DNA from: Gottschalkiaceae bacterium SANA | GTDB taxonomy: Bacteria > Bacillota > Clostridia > Tissierellales > GPF-1 | Assembly: GCA_036323355.1 (NCBI GenBank) | Contig: AP028876.1 | Location: forward strand, 2,170,001 to 2,234,000 | Direction: 5' to 3' | DNA: 64,000 nucleotides | Part shown: positions 27,423 to 35,823 of the stretch, one piece after another | Layout: every line of letters starts with the position of its first letter | How positions within the stretch are numbered: the first letter of the stretch is position 1 | Program-made: the position numbers and the translations under genes | The notes under the pieces: generated by a model | Seen by the model: only the letters and a program-made list of their open reading frames with translations | What the model was told of the DNA's origin: nothing | Database searches by the model: none

Positions 27423-29297
27423 CTACTCCTTAACGAAATTGAATATACTCTTAATATATTCAGGAATCTTAATACTCTTCCCCTCATTCACTAACTGCTC
27501 TTCTAAATAAAATGCAAAGTCTGACTTATGCTCTTCAATGTCAGCAAAATAATCATCAATTATAATTTCTTTAGTCCATCCTTTTGTCTTTAATTTCGCT
27601 AAATTTGGTCGTACCAACTTATAAGTATCTAAAAGAACAGTTCTCTCTTTCTCAGTCTTATTTGCTTCTAATATTGCCTTTTCAAATGTATTATCGTTGA
27701 ATTCAACTTTAATCACCTTGCAGTCATCATATTCTTCTCTCAATTTCGGTGCTCTGTTCTCGGTTATTTTGCCAGCATCCTTATCAGTAATTACGCCACA
27801 CTTTATGAAATATCCGTTTTTAACAACCTCCAAGAAATGTTTGAAAGCAACCCCATTAACGTTGATTATACTAATCCCCATGCTTTCAAGAGTTTTTCCT
27901 GTGTGCATGTTGAACAGTGCTGGTACGAGAATCTGCTCCGATATCCCTTCAACAAGAATAATTCTTCTAGCATAGAACATGCACGAATTAGTCGCATCCA
28001 GGTATTTCTTCAAGTACATTAAATGTTTCAGGTCTTTCACCTTTTCGCCAAATCCAGTGGTAATATAATGATACTCCAGAGCAGAATTATCCCTATACAG
28101 TATTACGATATCCTCAATATTAACAGAAGTTGCTATATGTGTAGAATGTGAAGTCATAAGCAACTGCGTTTTAACTTCACTCTCGCCATCATCATCTTGT
28201 ATTTTTCCAATTTCCTTTATTGAATTCGACAAATGTTTTTGCAAGTGAGGGTGCAAATGTGCTTCTGGCTCTTCAATTCCAATAACTCTAAAAATCAATT
28301 CATTCTTATCGTCCATCTTCGAAGTCAGATGCGACAAAACAATTGATATATATAATAAATTATTCTTCCCTAATCCATTTCTCTCTATAGAAATAGGATC
28401 ACGCCCATAAACCAAACTCAACTTCTTTAGTACCTCATTCACTTCTGGTGCTGAAAAACTGAAATTAATCACATCATCAGATTCTGGTCCTGATAGTAAA
28501 ACCTTTTTCAAATATTCGGTTATGTCATTACTAATTTTCATTAATTTATCATTTTCCTGGATATTTGAATTAAGTGTTTCTAGTGTGCTTTTAATATCCG
28601 AGAAATCATTTTCGTAATTTTGCGTCAATATCCTGTATAACAACTTATAATCACTATTTGCGACTAGTTGCTTTTTGGCATCGCGTAGCGCATCAAGGAC
28701 TTCGTATTTGAGCATTCTTAAGTAATATTGGTCACATTTGTTACTTTCATTATCTCCACCAAAAATTATGTATTCGTACTGTTCAATTGGAAAATCAACA
28801 TAATCATGTGGCTTATATTCTCCATCTTTGAATTTTTCTTTTAATTTCTCTAATGATCCAATTTGTTCATTAATCCATTTAGCTTTATCAAATCTTGATC
28901 TAGGTCTAAACAAATATGTGATTTTCACTTTTGTTAAAGACTTTTCAAAAAACCAATCACCAACCGCAGCCAGTTGCTCTTCACTCATATTCTCCAATAC
29001 TATTTCAACCTTCACCTCAGGAAAGGCAACGCCACTGAAATCTTCTATTCCTTTTGTCAAAGCACTAATATTCTTTTTGAAATCAAGCTTTGTTTTAAAG
29101 TTAATATCTTCAATATCAAGTGTACGCTTTTTAAACATCGTTATATCTTGACTTATAACCAATCCAATTGCCTCAATCAGATTTGATTTCCCTATATTAT
29201 TTTCTCCAATAATTAAAGTTGCTGGTCTTAAAGGTATTTCAAACTCTTTAGCACCAAAATTCCTATAATTCTTGATTGTTAATTTTGAAATATGCAT
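27423..29297 (-). CDS. OLD-family ATPase-Toprim nuclease (GajA-like)
   Basis: 624 residues; GajA is about 580. The N-terminal ABC/SMC-type ATPase has KNYRNFGAKEFEI and Walker A GENNIGKS (31-38), a coiled-coil middle, an ABC-signature-like segment near 305-312, Walker B VIGIEEPEAHLHP (338-350) and H-loop MTSHSTH (381-387). The C-terminal Toprim domain has ILVEGISEQILVPAL with Glu450 and ITDKDAG with Asp505 and Asp507. Class 2 OLD proteins occur beside UvrD-like helicases, as here. In Gabija the pair senses NTP loss and nicks phage DNA. The call is OLD with certainty and Gabija-like by context. Confidence 0.9.
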   Translation of the reverse strand: MHISKLTIKNYRNFGAKEFEIPLRPATLIIGENNIGKSNLIEAIGLVISQDITMFKKRTLDIEDINFKTKLDFKKNISALTKGIEDFSGVAFPEVKVEIVLENMSEEQLAAVGDWFFEKSLTKVKITYLFRPRSRFDKAKWINEQIGSLEKLKEKFKDGEYKPHDYVDFPIEQYEYIIFGGDNESNKCDQYYLRMLKYEVLDALRDAKKQLVANSDYKLLYRILTQNYENDFSDIKSTLETLNSNIQENDKLMKISNDITEYLKKVLLSGPESDDVINFSFSAPEVNEVLKKLSLVYGRDPISIERNGLGKNNLLYISIVLSHLTSKMDDKNELIFRVIGIEEPEAHLHPHLQKHLSNSIKEIGKIQDDDGESEVKTQLLMTSHSTHIATSVNIEDIVILYRDNSALEYHYITTGFGEKVKDLKHLMYLKKYLDATNSCMFYARRIILVEGISEQILVPALFNMHTGKTLESMGISIINVNGVAFKHFLEVVKNGYFIKCGVITDKDAGKITENRAPKLREEYDDCKVIKVEFNDNTFEKAILEANKTEKERTVLLDTYKLVRPNLAKLKTKGWTKEIIIDDYFADIEEHKSDFAFYLEEQLVNEGKSIKIPEYIKSIFNFVKE

Positions 29298-29353: not shown

Positions 29354-30100
29354 TCATATTTTTAAAACATCTCCATCAAATACAATTTCTTCAATATACT
29401 CCTTGAATACATCTAGCAACCGATCTGCCGATTGTGGTGTGTATGATGGAGATTGAGAAATAAATACATAATCCGGCTTCGTTTCAAGGCGAAACTCCTT
29501 CTCAGTTAATTCATTCAATTTCACAGCCGTTTCAACTACTTTTGGTTTAATTTTGAATAAGCTCGGATAATCAAGAACTGATTGTTTCTCATACCCCTTT
29601 AATTCGATATACCCCGAAAAATCATTGAAGTCTTTCATGTATATTTGCATATAATCCATTTCCCAATTAGGATGCTGAACAAAACTTATTTCCTTAATCC
29701 ATCTATTAGCAATAGCATATGTAAGGTAATTTCCCTCGTTTAATTTTGACGGGTAGGCTCGATCTCTAACTTCTCTATGCAATAAATCAAATACTACCTC
29801 AGTCCATGAAGAACTTCCCAACCCAAAATCGGAATGTGCATCGACGTGTATCACATCAAACGGAATTTTAAGATCTGCTTTTTGAACAAGTTCTCTCCAT
29901 GCTAAATAACAACCATGATGTTTTTTTACCATACAACCTTTAGCACGACTATTTTTAGATAATTTACACTTCGATTCAAGAAAATCGCAAAATCTGTCTA
30001 TGTCCCAAGAATAAATTTTCCCTTCTGACACTCTGAAATCAGCAGCATTATCAACTATACCTGATACGAAAAAGTCAAGGTCTAGATCAAGTACTATCAT
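29354..30100 (-). CDS. UPF0489-like protein (arginase/deacetylase-fold signature)
   Basis: 248 residues. The N-terminus opens with DLDLDFF (5-11). FDVIHVDAHSDFG follows, with metal-ligand-like His85, Asp87, His89 and Asp91, and SPSYTPQSADRLLD lies near the C-terminus. These are the hallmarks of UPF0489, a poorly studied family with an arginase/ureohydrolase-like fold. If metal-bound it should be a hydrolase of unknown substrate. It is the gene upstream of the OLD nuclease with a 56-base gap, and has a strong TTGGAGGAATAA site. Its inclusion in a defence-like operon is notable. Confidence 0.7.
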   Translation of the reverse strand: MIVLDLDLDFFVSGIVDNAADFRVSEGKIYSWDIDRFCDFLESKCKLSKNSRAKGCMVKKHHGCYLAWRELVQKADLKIPFDVIHVDAHSDFGLGSSSWTEVVFDLLHREVRDRAYPSKLNEGNYLTYAIANRWIKEISFVQHPNWEMDYMQIYMKDFNDFSGYIELKGYEKQSVLDYPSLFKIKPKVVETAVKLNELTEKEFRLETKPDYVFISQSPSYTPQSADRLLDVFKEYIEEIVFDGDVLKI

Positions 30101-30159
30101 TTATTCCTCCAATTAGTTTGATTTCACTTAATTCTTCCAACTATTCTGATAAACCGAAT

Positions 30160-30218: not shown

Positions 30219-31613
30219 TTAATTATAGCTGCTTGCTGCAGCTTTAGATTTTGAATCAATGATAACAAGCATAGGTACATTATCATCAATTTCTGAACGT
30301 TTTTCGTGCTCAGCAATAATTTTCTTCAGCCGTCCAGAGTTTCCAATATCTACAAACACGAACATTTTTTGTTTCGTTCCTTCTGCAGCCGCATACTGTT
30401 CAAGCTGCACGGTATATCCATGTAAATACCGCCCACTTGAAGACAATTTTATTTCACCAACAGTAATATCACCGCCTCGACTTACCTTGAAATCCGCTGG
30501 GCCTCTTCCGGCATCGGGTTCAAAACTTATATCCAAATTGTTTGATCGAATATAATGCTTTGCACTGAGGTGTAATAAACGCTGGACAACTCTTTCTCGT
30601 TTAGACGATTCTGTCTCAAGAATCGTCTCCCAGCCCTTATTATTTTCAATCCAATCTTTGAAAATAATAAGCACATCCTCTGCTGCTTGAATAGAAGTTT
30701 TAGTCTCTATTTCTTCGACATAAAATGAGATGCCAGTCTTTTTCATTTGCTTAAACAGCATTTCAACAAAATAATCCAAATCATTGCTTAACTTCACAGG
30801 TGGTGCTGTCAGATTGCGATATGCTTCAATAACACGAGTGCACCTCTCTGGGTCTTTAAACACCTGTTCTTTTAAATAGTTTTTCTTCTGACCCGAAGCC
30901 CATTTATGCCACTCTTCGCCAACTGCCGCATTAACTTCTCGACGTATACTCTCGTTTTCACTAATCACTCGACCAATATCTTCCCAACATTTTGCAATCG
31001 GTAATTCTTGAAGTATATCAACTGGCAAAAGTAATATTTCACAATCTTTGTAAGGATTAATAACTATCTCATCTCTAAATTGGAGCTCTGGATATGAGTT
31101 GGGGTCAATATTCAATTCTTGGTTAATTCGTTTAGTAAATTGAACTATGTCTGGAAGAATGATAGTCGCCACCATATCACTTAGTCTATCGGGACCAATA
31201 TTCTCTTCAAACAACCCAATAAGTTGAAATATTTCCGGTTGCTTTGAACCCTTTTTGATAATATCAAACGCATCATTCATAACCTGATTCCTAAGTTTTT
31301 TTCCAAATCCTGATCCATACTTTGATTCTGAGTACCCAAGATTTATACCATTTACTTCCGAAAAATCAAAAAGTCTGAATGCAGCTTTATAAAACTTATC
31401 ACCCTTTTTATCTGAAGTTTCCAATAGAGTTGCAATACTACTAAAAAGGTTATTTATAGACGCATATGAATTTTTGAATTCAGGAACTTGTGTTTCTTTT
31501 AACCTCATTAAATTAATAAAAAAGTTACTGTCCGTATCAATAATTGAATCAAAAACGCCTTTGTCTACAAATTCATCCTCTACACTCAAATATTCAGATG
31601 CAAAAATAGCCAT
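30219..31613 (-). CDS. Uncharacterised protein with C-terminal PD-(D/E)XK-like motif
   Basis: 464 residues from the ATG at 31613 (GAGGAGAGATG upstream). The N-terminal ~330 residues are helical and match no family I know. The last ~110 contain ISFEPDAGRGPADFKVS, then VGEIKLSSSGR, with Asp374, Glu387 and Lys389 in the D-(x)n-E-x-K order of restriction-like nucleases, and an LEQYAAAEG helix. The GRGPADF...GEIK pattern resembles DNA-targeting endonuclease cores in restriction and Shedu proteins. It lies between the shared-motif pair and the OLD operon and may be the nuclease partner of either. Confidence 0.6.
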   Translation of the reverse strand: MAIFASEYLSVEDEFVDKGVFDSIIDTDSNFFINLMRLKETQVPEFKNSYASINNLFSSIATLLETSDKKGDKFYKAAFRLFDFSEVNGINLGYSESKYGSGFGKKLRNQVMNDAFDIIKKGSKQPEIFQLIGLFEENIGPDRLSDMVATIILPDIVQFTKRINQELNIDPNSYPELQFRDEIVINPYKDCEILLLPVDILQELPIAKCWEDIGRVISENESIRREVNAAVGEEWHKWASGQKKNYLKEQVFKDPERCTRVIEAYRNLTAPPVKLSNDLDYFVEMLFKQMKKTGISFYVEEIETKTSIQAAEDVLIIFKDWIENNKGWETILETESSKRERVVQRLLHLSAKHYIRSNNLDISFEPDAGRGPADFKVSRGGDITVGEIKLSSSGRYLHGYTVQLEQYAAAEGTKQKMFVFVDIGNSGRLKKIIAEHEKRSEIDDNVPMLVIIDSKSKAAASSYN

Positions 31614-31627
31614 ATTTTCATCTCTCC

Positions 31628-31729
31628 TCAGACAAGTAAATTCGTGAAATTTCTGTATCTCTCCCACATTTGTTCTAATCCAGTATCAATAATTATGGTA
31701 TTCTTTGCTGCATTAAAGATTTCCACCAT
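31628..31729 (-). CDS. Possible 33-residue small protein coupled to its neighbours
   Basis: The ATG at 31729 is 5 bases after the stop of the upstream gene, with TGAGG before it. The frame ends in TGA at 31628, and that stop is part of the TGAGGAG ribosome site of the next gene. The product, opening MVEIFNAAKNTIIIDTGLEQ, is mixed charged and hydrophobic. The layout fits a short coupled gene, but length alone cannot exclude chance. Confidence 0.35.
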   Translation of the reverse strand: MVEIFNAAKNTIIIDTGLEQMWERYRNFTNLLV

Positions 31730-31733
31730 TGCC

Positions 31734-32843
31734 TCAATCTAAGTCAGGAAGAGTTTCATCATTTCTTTTTGCATTAGCATGCGCTAAAACTTTTCCGACC
31801 GCCGTTATCGTAAATGAACTTGGAATCTTGTTCCACCATTCTCTTACGATATTCAAGTAAGGGCGTTTTACCAACTCATCACAAAATCTTTTCTTAATGT
31901 CAGCCTTTAATGTTCCATTATTCTCATACATTTTATAAATCCGATGCAATTGCTGCTTTTGATTATCTGAAAGCTCAGCTTTTATTGGTATCTTTTTTCC
32001 CTCTAAGTTACAAAAATGAGTCCACGCAAGGCTATCAATGCTTTTTTCACTTGCAACTTCGAGCCTCACATATTCTTCATTCAACTCATGATTGCAAAGA
32101 ATATTCTCTGGCAATGCAACCTCTTTAATCATTTCAATAACTTTCGTATAATCATCCGAATTTTTTTTGATTCCAACTGCACAAAAACCAGACAACTTCT
32201 CACTATAGAAATCTTCATACTTTTTTATAGAAACAAATGTAGATGGCCGAACGGCATCCAATATGTCTAAGTGGTCAAGCCACTCTCTATTTTCCGGCAA
32301 CCTGTCATAGCATATTTTCTTGAATAATCCATCAAGAACATCGAGCCCGTCCGTAATACTTCCAGTAATAGGTTGATAAAATTGTACAGCAAATGCTACA
32401 GTCAATCCTAATAAAGCGTCATCCGAGATCTCGTCCACTATTTCAACTGCCTTACGAATTCCTACACGAGTTTTTCTATTATCCCCCTTCTGTATTCTTC
32501 TTAATAAGAGCTCCGACAATAATGAATAATCTGCCTCCCTATCAGTTGTAGCAGCGGTCTTATGCGCACTTGTTAATAGAAATTGAAAATCAGGATCAGC
32601 AAATGCATTCATTGCGCCATGAACTTTTCCCATTTTTGGAATCAGATCATTTTCAAAGTTCGTTACCCTTTGTGTTGCTAGGCTAAAGGCCTCATTAGTC
32701 AAATCTTTCTTAGCAACAGCGAACATCTCCATGAATATTTCTCGCGCCCGTTTTTCTTCTATACCATTATGGATGATGATGGATTGCGCTTGAATCTGTT
32801 GCGAGTTTTCACCAGCTTTTTGGACTTGCTTTTCACTTGCCAT
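31734..32843 (-). CDS. Soluble protein with N-terminal KQVQ motif, possibly the LPO_1073/Vpar_1526 family
   Basis: 369 residues from the ATG at 32843, preceded by GGGAGGGTTG (a tandem ATG lies one codon earlier). The first 20 residues contain KQVQKAGENSQQIQ (5-18), a motif found twice in the small membrane protein just upstream. The rest is helical, with EEKRAREIFMEMFAVAKKDL, HKTAATTDREADYSLLSELL and EIVDEISDDALLGLTV. From memory it resembles proteins named LPO_1073/Vpar_1526, of unknown function; this needs checking. No nuclease, ATPase or TIR motif is visible. It overlaps the membrane protein gene by 11 bases, so the two are translated together. Confidence 0.65.
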   Translation of the reverse strand: MASEKQVQKAGENSQQIQAQSIIIHNGIEEKRAREIFMEMFAVAKKDLTNEAFSLATQRVTNFENDLIPKMGKVHGAMNAFADPDFQFLLTSAHKTAATTDREADYSLLSELLLRRIQKGDNRKTRVGIRKAVEIVDEISDDALLGLTVAFAVQFYQPITGSITDGLDVLDGLFKKICYDRLPENREWLDHLDILDAVRPSTFVSIKKYEDFYSEKLSGFCAVGIKKNSDDYTKVIEMIKEVALPENILCNHELNEEYVRLEVASEKSIDSLAWTHFCNLEGKKIPIKAELSDNQKQQLHRIYKMYENNGTLKADIKKRFCDELVKRPYLNIVREWWNKIPSSFTITAVGKVLAHANAKRNDETLPDLD

Positions 32844-33108
32844 CATCAACCCTCCCAACTTGCACTTGAGAAGCATGCTCCCCAGCTTTTTGAACTTGCT
32901 TAATACTCGAACTAATTCTTCCTGAGTCAACAACAGCTTTTCCACTTCCAATCTCTATAGTTTGGCTCTGATTAGCATATTTCTCAGCATTTTGTACTTG
33001 TTTCGAACGACTTTTAATACCTATTCTATATCCCATCGTTCCTCCAACTATTGCGCCTATAAAAAGAGTCATTATTGCAGTTCCAATACCGTCAAAAATC
33101 CATTCCAT
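32833..33108 (-). CDS. Small one-pass membrane protein with two KQVQ motifs
   Basis: 91 residues. One glycine-rich transmembrane helix (about 8-30, ending GYRIGIKSRSK) precedes a soluble tail with two motif copies: KQVQNAEKYANQSQ (36-49) followed by TIEIGSG, and KQVQKAGEHASQVQ (70-83) followed by VGRVDDG. The copies are 34 residues apart. The IEIG and VQVG tetrads resemble the core of RHIM-like amyloid signalling motifs. The next gene carries the same motif at its N-terminus and overlaps this gene. I infer that the two proteins bind through the motif. The function is unknown; membrane effector or anchor are both possible. Confidence 0.7.
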   Translation of the reverse strand: MEWIFDGIGTAIMTLFIGAIVGGTMGYRIGIKSRSKQVQNAEKYANQSQTIEIGSGKAVVDSGRISSSIKQVQKAGEHASQVQVGRVDDGK

Positions 33109-33149: not shown

Positions 33150-33393
33150 TTAACTATCGGCAATAACACTAGCCAACACTTCTATAGATATTCGAAGATT
33201 TCGATGCATCATCCTATGGCAATTCGCACATAGCAACACTATCTCTTCAACTCTTGTTTTATCCTCTTCTTTTAACTCAGAAATAGGAATCCTATGATGC
33301 CCTTCAATGATATATAACACTATCCCGCGCACGTCCCGAACACGAATCGTATTCACTCCACCGCGAGTTTGGCTTTAATGATGAAATATTCAA
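33150..33393 (-). pseudogene. Frameshifted or truncated HNH endonuclease remnant
   Basis: The 3' part (33150-33356) encodes IIEGHHRIPISELK and, after a spacer, VLLCANCHRMMHR, a clear HNH zinc-finger nuclease end. It lacks the upstream domain. A separate frame starts at a TTG (33393) with a perfect GTAGGAGG site and encodes NISSLKPNSRWSEYDSC before stopping at 33304. The two pieces overlap in different frames, so one frameshift in a short or already truncated HNH gene is likely. It lies 41 bases upstream of the membrane protein gene. Confidence 0.5.
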
Positions 33394-34377: not shown

Positions 34378-35742
34378 TTAATTCTTAGATAAACTAACGA
34401 TCGTTTCGACGTGCGGGGTTGCAGCAAACATATCAACTGCGGTTGTCTTCTCAATCACATAACCCGCTGCCTGTAACTGCTTCAGGTTTTCAACAAGAGA
34501 GCTTGCCTTACAAGAAACATAGACAATTCTGGGGGAATTGAAAGCAATAATCTTTTCCAATGTTTTTTCCAAGACACCCATGCGCGGCGGGTCAAGAATA
34601 ATGACATCTGGTGTAATTCCCTGGTCCGACAATTCGTCGACTTTTTCAAATACATCACCGGCAACAAAATGACAATTCGTCAGGCTATTCTTCTCTGCGT
34701 TGATCTTGGCTGCTTCTACCGCTTCCTCCACCAACTCAATTCCATAGACTTCCTTGGCCGTGCTGGCCATCAATTGACCAATGGTACCTGTTCCAGAAAA
34801 AAGATCAAATACGATTTGATCGTCAACATCACCTACATACTCGCGAACCGTGTTATAGAGAACCTCGGCTCCTGCTGAATTCGTTTGAAAGAATGAAAAC
34901 GCCCCGATTTGAAAGGTTAAACCCAGAAGCTTCTCCACCAAGTAGTCTCTTCCATAAAGCAGATTCACCTTCTCCGGTATAACTACATCACCCAGCGTGT
35001 CATTCTCCGTGTGAAGGACTCCTACAAGGGTCTGTTCAAGCGGAAGGCTCTTCATTAACTCAAGGTACCCTTCTGTGTCAACTTCGCCCTGTGTGCTTGT
35101 AACGAGGTTTACCAAGATCTCCTTTGTAAACTCCGCTCGGCGTACCACCAAATACCTAAGAATTCCTTGATGACTTCTTCTGTGATAAAACGGTGTCCCA
35201 TTCTTTCTGAAAAAATCCTGGGTAGCAGAAAGAATCATGCGGTAATCTTCATCAACGATCTGGCAATCTGTAACCGGCACAATTTCATAAAACCGTCCCC
35301 GCTCATGCATCCCAATAGTGAGGGGACCATCCTTCTCTTGATCGCCGAAGGTAAATTCCATTTTATTCCGATAAGCCGTTTGTTTTGGACTCGGATGCAC
35401 ACCTTCGAAGGTATCGTCTTCAACGCCTGCCGCTTTCAAAATTTTCAGCAGTTGCTTTTCTTTTAGTTGCAGCTGCTTGTCGTAAGGATAGTGCTGATAT
35501 GCGCAGCCTCCGCAATCTGGGAAGTGCACGCACTGCGATGGAATTTGATCCGGTGCTTCCTCCAAAGTCTCAAGGACACGTCCCACAATCTTACTGCCCT
35601 TCTTCTTTACAATTCGAACATGAACCTTTTGTCCAGGTAAGGTGTTCTTCACAATAATCTTTTTATCTTCTGCATAGGCAATTCCCTTATTGGGAAAATC
35701 CACATTTTCTATGGTTAAGGCAAATTCTTGTCCTTTTTTCAT
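34378..35742 (-). CDS. rlmD: 23S rRNA (uracil-5-)-methyltransferase, RumA/TrmA family
   Basis: 454 residues from the ATG at 35742. The N-terminal TRAM domain is at about 4-60. The four-Cys iron-sulfur cluster site starts CVHFPDCGGCAYQHY, with the fourth Cys later (TDCQIVDEDY). The SAM-binding methyltransferase domain has VFDLFSGTGTIGQ, LDPPRMGV and the nucleophile Cys in IVYVSCKASSL. It methylates uridine C5 in 23S rRNA; Firmicutes often carry several paralogues (RlmCD), so the exact base is uncertain. GGAGTGGTGATAAG lies upstream. It is the first core gene beyond the accessory island. Confidence 0.88.
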   Translation of the reverse strand: MKKGQEFALTIENVDFPNKGIAYAEDKKIIVKNTLPGQKVHVRIVKKKGSKIVGRVLETLEEAPDQIPSQCVHFPDCGGCAYQHYPYDKQLQLKEKQLLKILKAAGVEDDTFEGVHPSPKQTAYRNKMEFTFGDQEKDGPLTIGMHERGRFYEIVPVTDCQIVDEDYRMILSATQDFFRKNGTPFYHRRSHQGILRYLVVRRAEFTKEILVNLVTSTQGEVDTEGYLELMKSLPLEQTLVGVLHTENDTLGDVVIPEKVNLLYGRDYLVEKLLGLTFQIGAFSFFQTNSAGAEVLYNTVREYVGDVDDQIVFDLFSGTGTIGQLMASTAKEVYGIELVEEAVEAAKINAEKNSLTNCHFVAGDVFEKVDELSDQGITPDVIILDPPRMGVLEKTLEKIIAFNSPRIVYVSCKASSLVENLKQLQAAGYVIEKTTAVDMFAATPHVETIVSLSKN

Positions 35743-35800
35743 TCTTATCACCACTCCTTTATTCTTCCCTATTGTATGAGGTGAAGCGATTTCCGTCAAT

Positions 35801-35823
35801 AAAAAAAAGCCCATAAGGGCTTT
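35801..35823 (-). terminator. Terminator of the RsbW-like gene
   Basis: AAAGCCC-ATA-AGGGCTTT overlaps the stop codon and is followed on the minus strand by eight T. Confidence 0.85.

What the first reader, a model, noticed from the sequence alone, without database searches (positions are those of the whole stretch)
29354..30100. UPF0489/arginase-like protein inside a defence gene run
Seen: DLDLDFF and HVDAHSDFG metal-ligand-like motifs, with a good ribosome site and a 56-base gap before the OLD gene. Known: UPF0489 has no established biochemical role. Inference: it may make or remove a small molecule that gates the nuclease, or act as an effector.
Basis: partly seen in the sequence, partly recalled or inferred. 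Interest (0 to 1): 0.58.

Follow-up and report, generated by a model that had tools for sequence, protein, structure and literature searches.

The report
Rearranged arginase-fold enzyme in defence island
A gene among phage-defence genes encodes an arginase-like metal enzyme whose two-aspartate catalytic strand has moved to the front of the protein; it looks like a mobile stand-alone gene, not a part of the neighbouring defence system.

Summary
In detail: a 248-aa gene (29354-30100, minus strand) with DLDLDFF and HVDAHSDFG, a GGAGG ribosome site, and 56 bases before a Gabija GajA gene. The window protein is a relative of these, not a standard member. All six OspR metal ligands are present and invariant (30 of 30 sequences), but the strand carrying two of them has moved from near the C-terminus to the N-terminus (A-B-C-D became C-A-B-D). 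Out-of-order HMM matches to OspR, sub-profile positions and an AlphaFold model (pLDDT 94; OspR Z 10.8 over residues 51-245 only) support this. 26 of 27 genome relatives share the order. The residue matching OspR Glu11 is never acidic (0 of 30), so substrate binding probably differs. A link to Gabija or Shedu is not supported: partners vary, 13 relatives form a Clostridia clade with mostly housekeeping neighbours, and the closest GajA relative lacks the gene. Most likely a laterally mobile, stand-alone Mn hydrolase of islands and phages.

The parts
29354..30100 (-). rearranged UPF0489 / arginase-fold gene (248 aa)
   Evidence: model; OspR match
30106..30110 (-). ribosome-binding site GGAGG, 5 nt before ATG
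30068..30091 (-). segment C motif LDLDLDFF (residues 4-11); metal ligands D7 and D9; C-terminal in OspR, N-terminal here
29897..29926 (-). segment A motif KKHHGCYLAW (residues 59-68); metal ligand H61; K60 replaces OspR Glu11
29828..29851 (-). segment B motif IHVDAHSD (residues 84-91); metal ligands D87, H89, D91
29435..29464 (-). segment D motif FISQSPSYTP (residues 213-222), last conserved strand; stays C-terminal as in OspR
27423..29297 (-). GajA (OLD family, Gabija); neighbour, judged not part of the enzyme's system
   Evidence: PDLC00077, 807 bits
25884..27419 (-). GajB (UvrD-type helicase, Gabija); neighbour
   Evidence: PDLC00118, 519 bits
24655..25875 (-). SduA (Shedu); neighbour
   Evidence: 465 bits
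23597..24604 (-). 335-aa protein, hydrophobic N-terminus by eye, no family; neighbour
30219..31667 (-). 482-aa protein, PDC-M36A-like N-terminal part, PD-(D/E)XK-like C-terminus by eye; neighbour
   Evidence: 31 bits; motif by eye; plasmid relatives
31734..32843 (-). LPO_1073/Vpar_1526 family protein; neighbour
   Evidence: 98 bits over a 45-bit cut-off; start codon chosen

Best explanation
The gene encodes a two-metal (probably Mn) hydrolase of the ureohydrolase (arginase) fold. It belongs to a divergent lineage related to UPF0489 peptide arginases in which the strand carrying two metal-binding aspartates has moved to the N-terminus (C-A-B-D instead of A-B-C-D). Its active-site metal cluster is predicted intact, so metal-hydroxide attack on a guanidino- or formimino-type carbon is the most likely chemistry (inferred). 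Its substrate probably differs from OspR's, because the guanidinium-stabilising acid is missing. It acts as a stand-alone gene that moves between defence islands, plasmids and prophages, and in the window it sits between other defence genes without being a Gabija or Shedu component. Shown by computation: fold relationship, metal ligands, strand order, scattered distribution. Inferred: activity, substrate, and any role in phage conflict.
For: Profile of 30 relatives against PDB: OspR (8brp) E 7.3e-8, matched out of order: query 52-151 to chain 3-97, query 3-14 to chain 162-173. AlphaFold model pLDDT 94.2, pTM 0.92, first strand residues 2-7. Foldseek: only 8brp chains at E<=0.001. VIA: 8brp Z 10.8, rmsd 4.0, 169 residues, model 51-245 only; next are agmatinases, an arginase, proclavaminate amidinohydrolase and hydroxyarginine hydrolase at Z 4.7-5.7. 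OspR ligands H12, D39, H41, D43, D165, D167 map to H61, D87, H89, D91, D7, D9, each 30 of 30. 26 of 27 genome loci have the N-terminal strand; sub-profiles give the opposite order in 5 of 5 canonical proteins. OspR Glu11 position: T14, H7, N5, Q2, K1, R1, no acid. Mobility: 1 of 398 phylum genomes by P0001, absent from both other genomes of its genus, tree places it outside the Clostridia clade, relatives on plasmids and in viral contigs.
Against: No activity data. Segment D is too weakly conserved to be placed by sequence alone (no significant hit), so C-A-B-D rather than a full circular permutation rests on the structural alignment and motif reading. Nuclease-type neighbours recur at some loci, so a conflict-linked partnership in some lineages cannot be excluded. 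The Glu11-position argument is weak: two of five canonical proteins (L008, L038) also lack an acid there.
Confidence: 0.62

Rival explanations
1. The enzyme is an accessory of the adjacent Gabija (OLD) system: it makes or removes a small molecule, or modifies GajA, to gate the nuclease.
For: Same strand and 56-nt gap to GajA. GajA, GajB and SduA are genuine by PADLOC.
Against: Closest GajA relative on plasmids (49%) has GajB but no UPF0489 gene. No other UPF0489 locus examined carries GajA: all-against-all comparison put the window GajA in no shared cluster. Partners differ between loci.
Confidence: 0.08
2. It is an ordinary metabolic or housekeeping amidinohydrolase that drifted into the island as a passenger.
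For: 13 Clostridia relatives form a clade (100/100); tested neighbours there include trigger factor, YchF, SurE, PrmA, FtsA-like and MiaB-like genes.
Against: Rare and scattered outside that clade, on plasmids and in viral contigs; no constant metabolic partner seen; the position within Clostridia also varies.
Confidence: 0.22
3. It is a peptide arginase of a RiPP pathway, like OspR.
For: Best structural and profile relative is OspR; NCBIfam peptide arginase FlmR/OhkR matched at 27.6 bits.
Against: 27.6 bits is far below the 350-bit cut-off. No RiPP enzyme family among the window neighbours; gaps of 56 and 118 nt leave no room for a precursor gene next to it. Guanidine-stabilising acid missing.
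Confidence: 0.04

Closest known systems
OspR peptide arginase (PDB 8BRP, PF12640)
   Same: Ureohydrolase fold, same six metal ligands, related HxEAF-like, DxHxD and LDIDLDYF motifs
   Different: LDIDLDYF strand moved to the N-terminus; no RiPP context; OspR Glu11 replaced by K60; shorter chain (248 against about 305 residues), so the OspR dimerisation segment (170-234) is probably absent
Conventional arginases, agmatinases, proclavaminate amidinohydrolase
   Same: Fold at VIA Z 4.7-5.7, two-metal ligand set
   Different: Distant sequence, different motif context, rearranged strand order
Gabija (GajA/GajB) and Shedu (SduA)
   Same: Shares the operon-like run in this window
   Different: No homology; not found side by side with this gene elsewhere in the loci examined (one annotated SduA lies about 7.5 kb away in L004)

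Membership tests
UPF0489 / PF12640 peptide arginases | Pfam gathering score of 27 bits | tested here: not met
   17.9 bits, profile 3-85 of 167 only
UPF0489 / PF12640 peptide arginases | Six metal-ligand residues in three motifs | tested here: met
   H61, D87, H89, D91, D7, D9, invariant in 30 of 30; OspR ligands
UPF0489 / PF12640 peptide arginases | Motif order EEHxEAF - DxHxD - LDIDLDYF | tested here: not met
   LDLDLDFF comes first
UPF0489 / PF12640 peptide arginases | Ureohydrolase alpha-beta-alpha fold | tested here: met
   8brp Z 10.8, Foldseek prob 1.00
UPF0489 / PF12640 peptide arginases | Acidic residue before the first metal His (OspR Glu11) | tested here: not met
   K60; column has no D or E in 30 sequences; two of five canonical proteins also lack it
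UPF0489 / PF12640 peptide arginases | Dimerisation segment (OspR 170-234) | tested here: inconclusive
   No insertion of that length after the LDLDLDFF motif by sequence; not checked in three dimensions
UPF0489 / PF12640 peptide arginases | Arg-to-Orn activity on a precursor peptide in a RiPP cluster | not testable with these tools
   No RiPP genes among window neighbours; activity needs an assay
Gabija | Gene is a constant component with GajA and GajB | tested here: not met
   Cytobacillus GajA-GajB locus lacks it; no GajA among relatives' neighbours

The most novel reading that the evidence does not exclude
A topologically rearranged arginase-fold enzyme that modifies arginine or another guanidino or formimino group on phage or host molecules as a single-gene phage-conflict function, carried by defence islands and as prophage cargo beside the terminase genes.
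Probability: 0.13. Interest if true: 0.85.

Novelty: new variant of a known kind. Interest (0 to 1): 0.5.

Why it matters
Moving one catalytic strand of a metalloenzyme to the other end of the chain, keeping all ligands, is unusual and makes a test of how folds tolerate rearrangement. It also explains why standard profiles miss this lineage: the Pfam model sees only half of it. The family is carried by islands, plasmids and prophages and has no known substrate.

Tried and rejected
Gabija-partner idea: rejected as above. RiPP idea: no RiPP genes near. Whole-protein circular permutation (C-D-A-B): rejected because SPxYTP stays C-terminal after A and B, and the structural alignment follows OspR from its residue 2 to 304 with model residues 51-245; the placement of D is by structure and reading, since its sub-profile gave no significant hit. 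PADLOC on neighbours: 84 proteins from 15 scattered loci (25 of 58 matched families shown, mostly protein-kinase models, likely the two kinases of L016 and L019) and 62 from 12 Clostridia loci; no clear enrichment of defence systems. Loci left out of these two sets: L003 and L005 (near-duplicates of L004 and L002), L006 and L007, L031 (close to L030), L038 (canonical), L039-L041 (viral, treated apart). PHROGs and PADLOC had no family for the protein itself. The Synechococcus phage S-RSM4 protein C7BUW9, found by fold, was not located: the profile gave nothing, and ORF filters found no candidate. Empty-site comparison: one sister-genome contig stops at the boundary and the other diverges there, so only the right edge of the island was bracketed. 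A second AlphaFold job was available and not used. The viral-contig scan with P0001 alone found nothing; the 30-row alignment found three loci.

Full report
What is there. The window carries a run of minus-strand genes at 33108-23597: a 91-aa membrane-type ORF, an LPO_1073/Vpar_1526 protein, a 482-aa protein, the UPF0489-like gene, GajA, GajB, SduA and a 335-aa protein. The stretch is 34% G+C against about 40-44% in the flanks. In one sister species homology stops at window 34224 and in another the contig ends at about the same place, so this is probably the right edge of an inserted island. The gene of interest starts with GGAGG-AATAA-ATG and is 56 nt from GajA.

What family. Pfam UPF0489 scores 17.9 bits (cut-off 27, residues 57-146) and NCBIfam peptide arginase 27.6 bits (cut-off 350, residues 56-174). 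UPF0489 is not an uncharacterised family: OspR hydrolyses peptidyl arginine to ornithine (PMC10028609: abstract, introduction, first results sections and the first part of the structure section read, passages), as do FlmR and OhkR (PMC12703449: first part read, passages) and BipC (PMC12707348: passages only).

The rearrangement. In canonical proteins (L008-L011, L038) the order is HxxEAF-like - DxHxD - LDIDLDYF - S/RSxxYTP-like; in the window protein and 26 of 27 genome-contig relatives LDIDLDFF is N-terminal. In many of them the open frame leaves only a few residues before it, so nothing has been cut off. A profile of 30 relatives hits OspR in two pieces in swapped order (the second piece is short and not significant on its own), and sub-profiles place segment C at residues 165-218 of the five canonical proteins, after A/B in each (the B sub-profile alone is not significant in L008). 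The AlphaFold model is confident and its OspR alignment starts at residue 51, leaving the N-terminal strand unaligned, as expected if that strand is out of order. A more distant set from the same phylum (nine proteins, L043-L051; a tenth, L052, did not pass the filter) shares the N-terminal strand, so the rearranged lineage is broad.

Active site. The six OspR ligands map to six invariant residues (38 of 38 with the outer set). R23 is 30 of 30 in the inner set and 36 of 38 with the outer set. The position of OspR Glu11, proposed to stabilise the guanidinium, is never acidic in the window's subfamily but is Asp in 6 of 9 outer members. This points to a changed substrate; it does not prove one.

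Context. Of 26 rearranged genome loci, 13 form a Clostridia clade (a fourteenth Clostridia locus, L037, is a long-branch outlier). Ten of that clade's neighbours were scanned: mostly housekeeping, transport or envelope genes, plus one leucine-rich-repeat protein. Of 40 neighbours scanned at other loci (chosen by me), nuclease-type families appear at L014 (PIN), L016 (HNH), L020 (HNH, Mrr, HNH_2) and L006 (GmrSD); L004 has an AlbA/Schlafen gene and an annotated SduA about 7.5 kb away. Housekeeping neighbours also occur there (MnmG at L015, DnaE at L019, spermine synthase at L012). In viral loci L039 and L041 the gene lies about 2.4-4.3 kb upstream of the terminase large subunit, in L017 it is next to the terminase small subunit, and in L040 it sits inverted between a phage HNH gene and the terminase large subunit. 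L039 and L041 are near-identical around the gene, so this is three independent cases; L017 was recognised as viral by its terminase, and the S. suis phage copies are elsewhere. This is suggestive of cargo, not proof.

Partnership with Gabija. Not supported. The gene and GajA are both absent from the two other genomes of its genus. A GajA match at E <= 1e-60 was found in 1 of 398 phylum genomes, the window's own, so co-occurrence could not be measured well by that route.

Literature. Papers mentioning UPF0489: 4; PF12640, pfam12640 or IPR024131: 2; ureohydrolase with circular permut-: 0; arginase with anti-phage defense: 2 and with phage defence: 0; arginase with Gabija: 2, unrelated by their abstracts. 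None of these listings describes the rearrangement or a defence role; the library holds open-licence papers only.

Verdict. A real, intact-looking member of a strand-rearranged arginase-fold lineage; ordinary chemistry expected, substrate unknown, link to the neighbouring defence genes by location only.

Noticed in passing
window 32833-33108 and 31734-32843 (-): Two adjacent ORFs share a short repeat: the C-terminus of the 91-aa membrane-type ORF (SSIKQVQKAGEHASQVQVG) and the N-terminus of the LPO_1073-family protein (ASEKQVQKAGENSQQIQ); local score 56, reached by 0 of 1000 shuffles. The layout and VQVG resemble bacterial amyloid-signalling (RHIM-like) pairs, by recall.
   Followed up: partly
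L021 8995-11447, L004 9911-12378: In Rhizobiales the enzyme gene overlaps a roughly 550-aa gene (no Pfam match for the L021 copy) whose N-terminus looks membrane-spanning; a possible lineage-specific pair.
   Followed up: partly
L006 6001-6509: The Streptococcus suis phage copy beside a GmrSD-type nuclease is broken into short frames.
   Followed up: partly
window 33150-33380 (-): Remnant reading frame with CANCHRMMHRN, looks like an HNH fragment by eye.
   Followed up: no
L076 1-1150: Where the island begins in the window, a sister species has an open frame that looks like a tyrosine recombinase by eye, suggesting an integration hotspot beside the gene at 34378-35814.
   Followed up: partly
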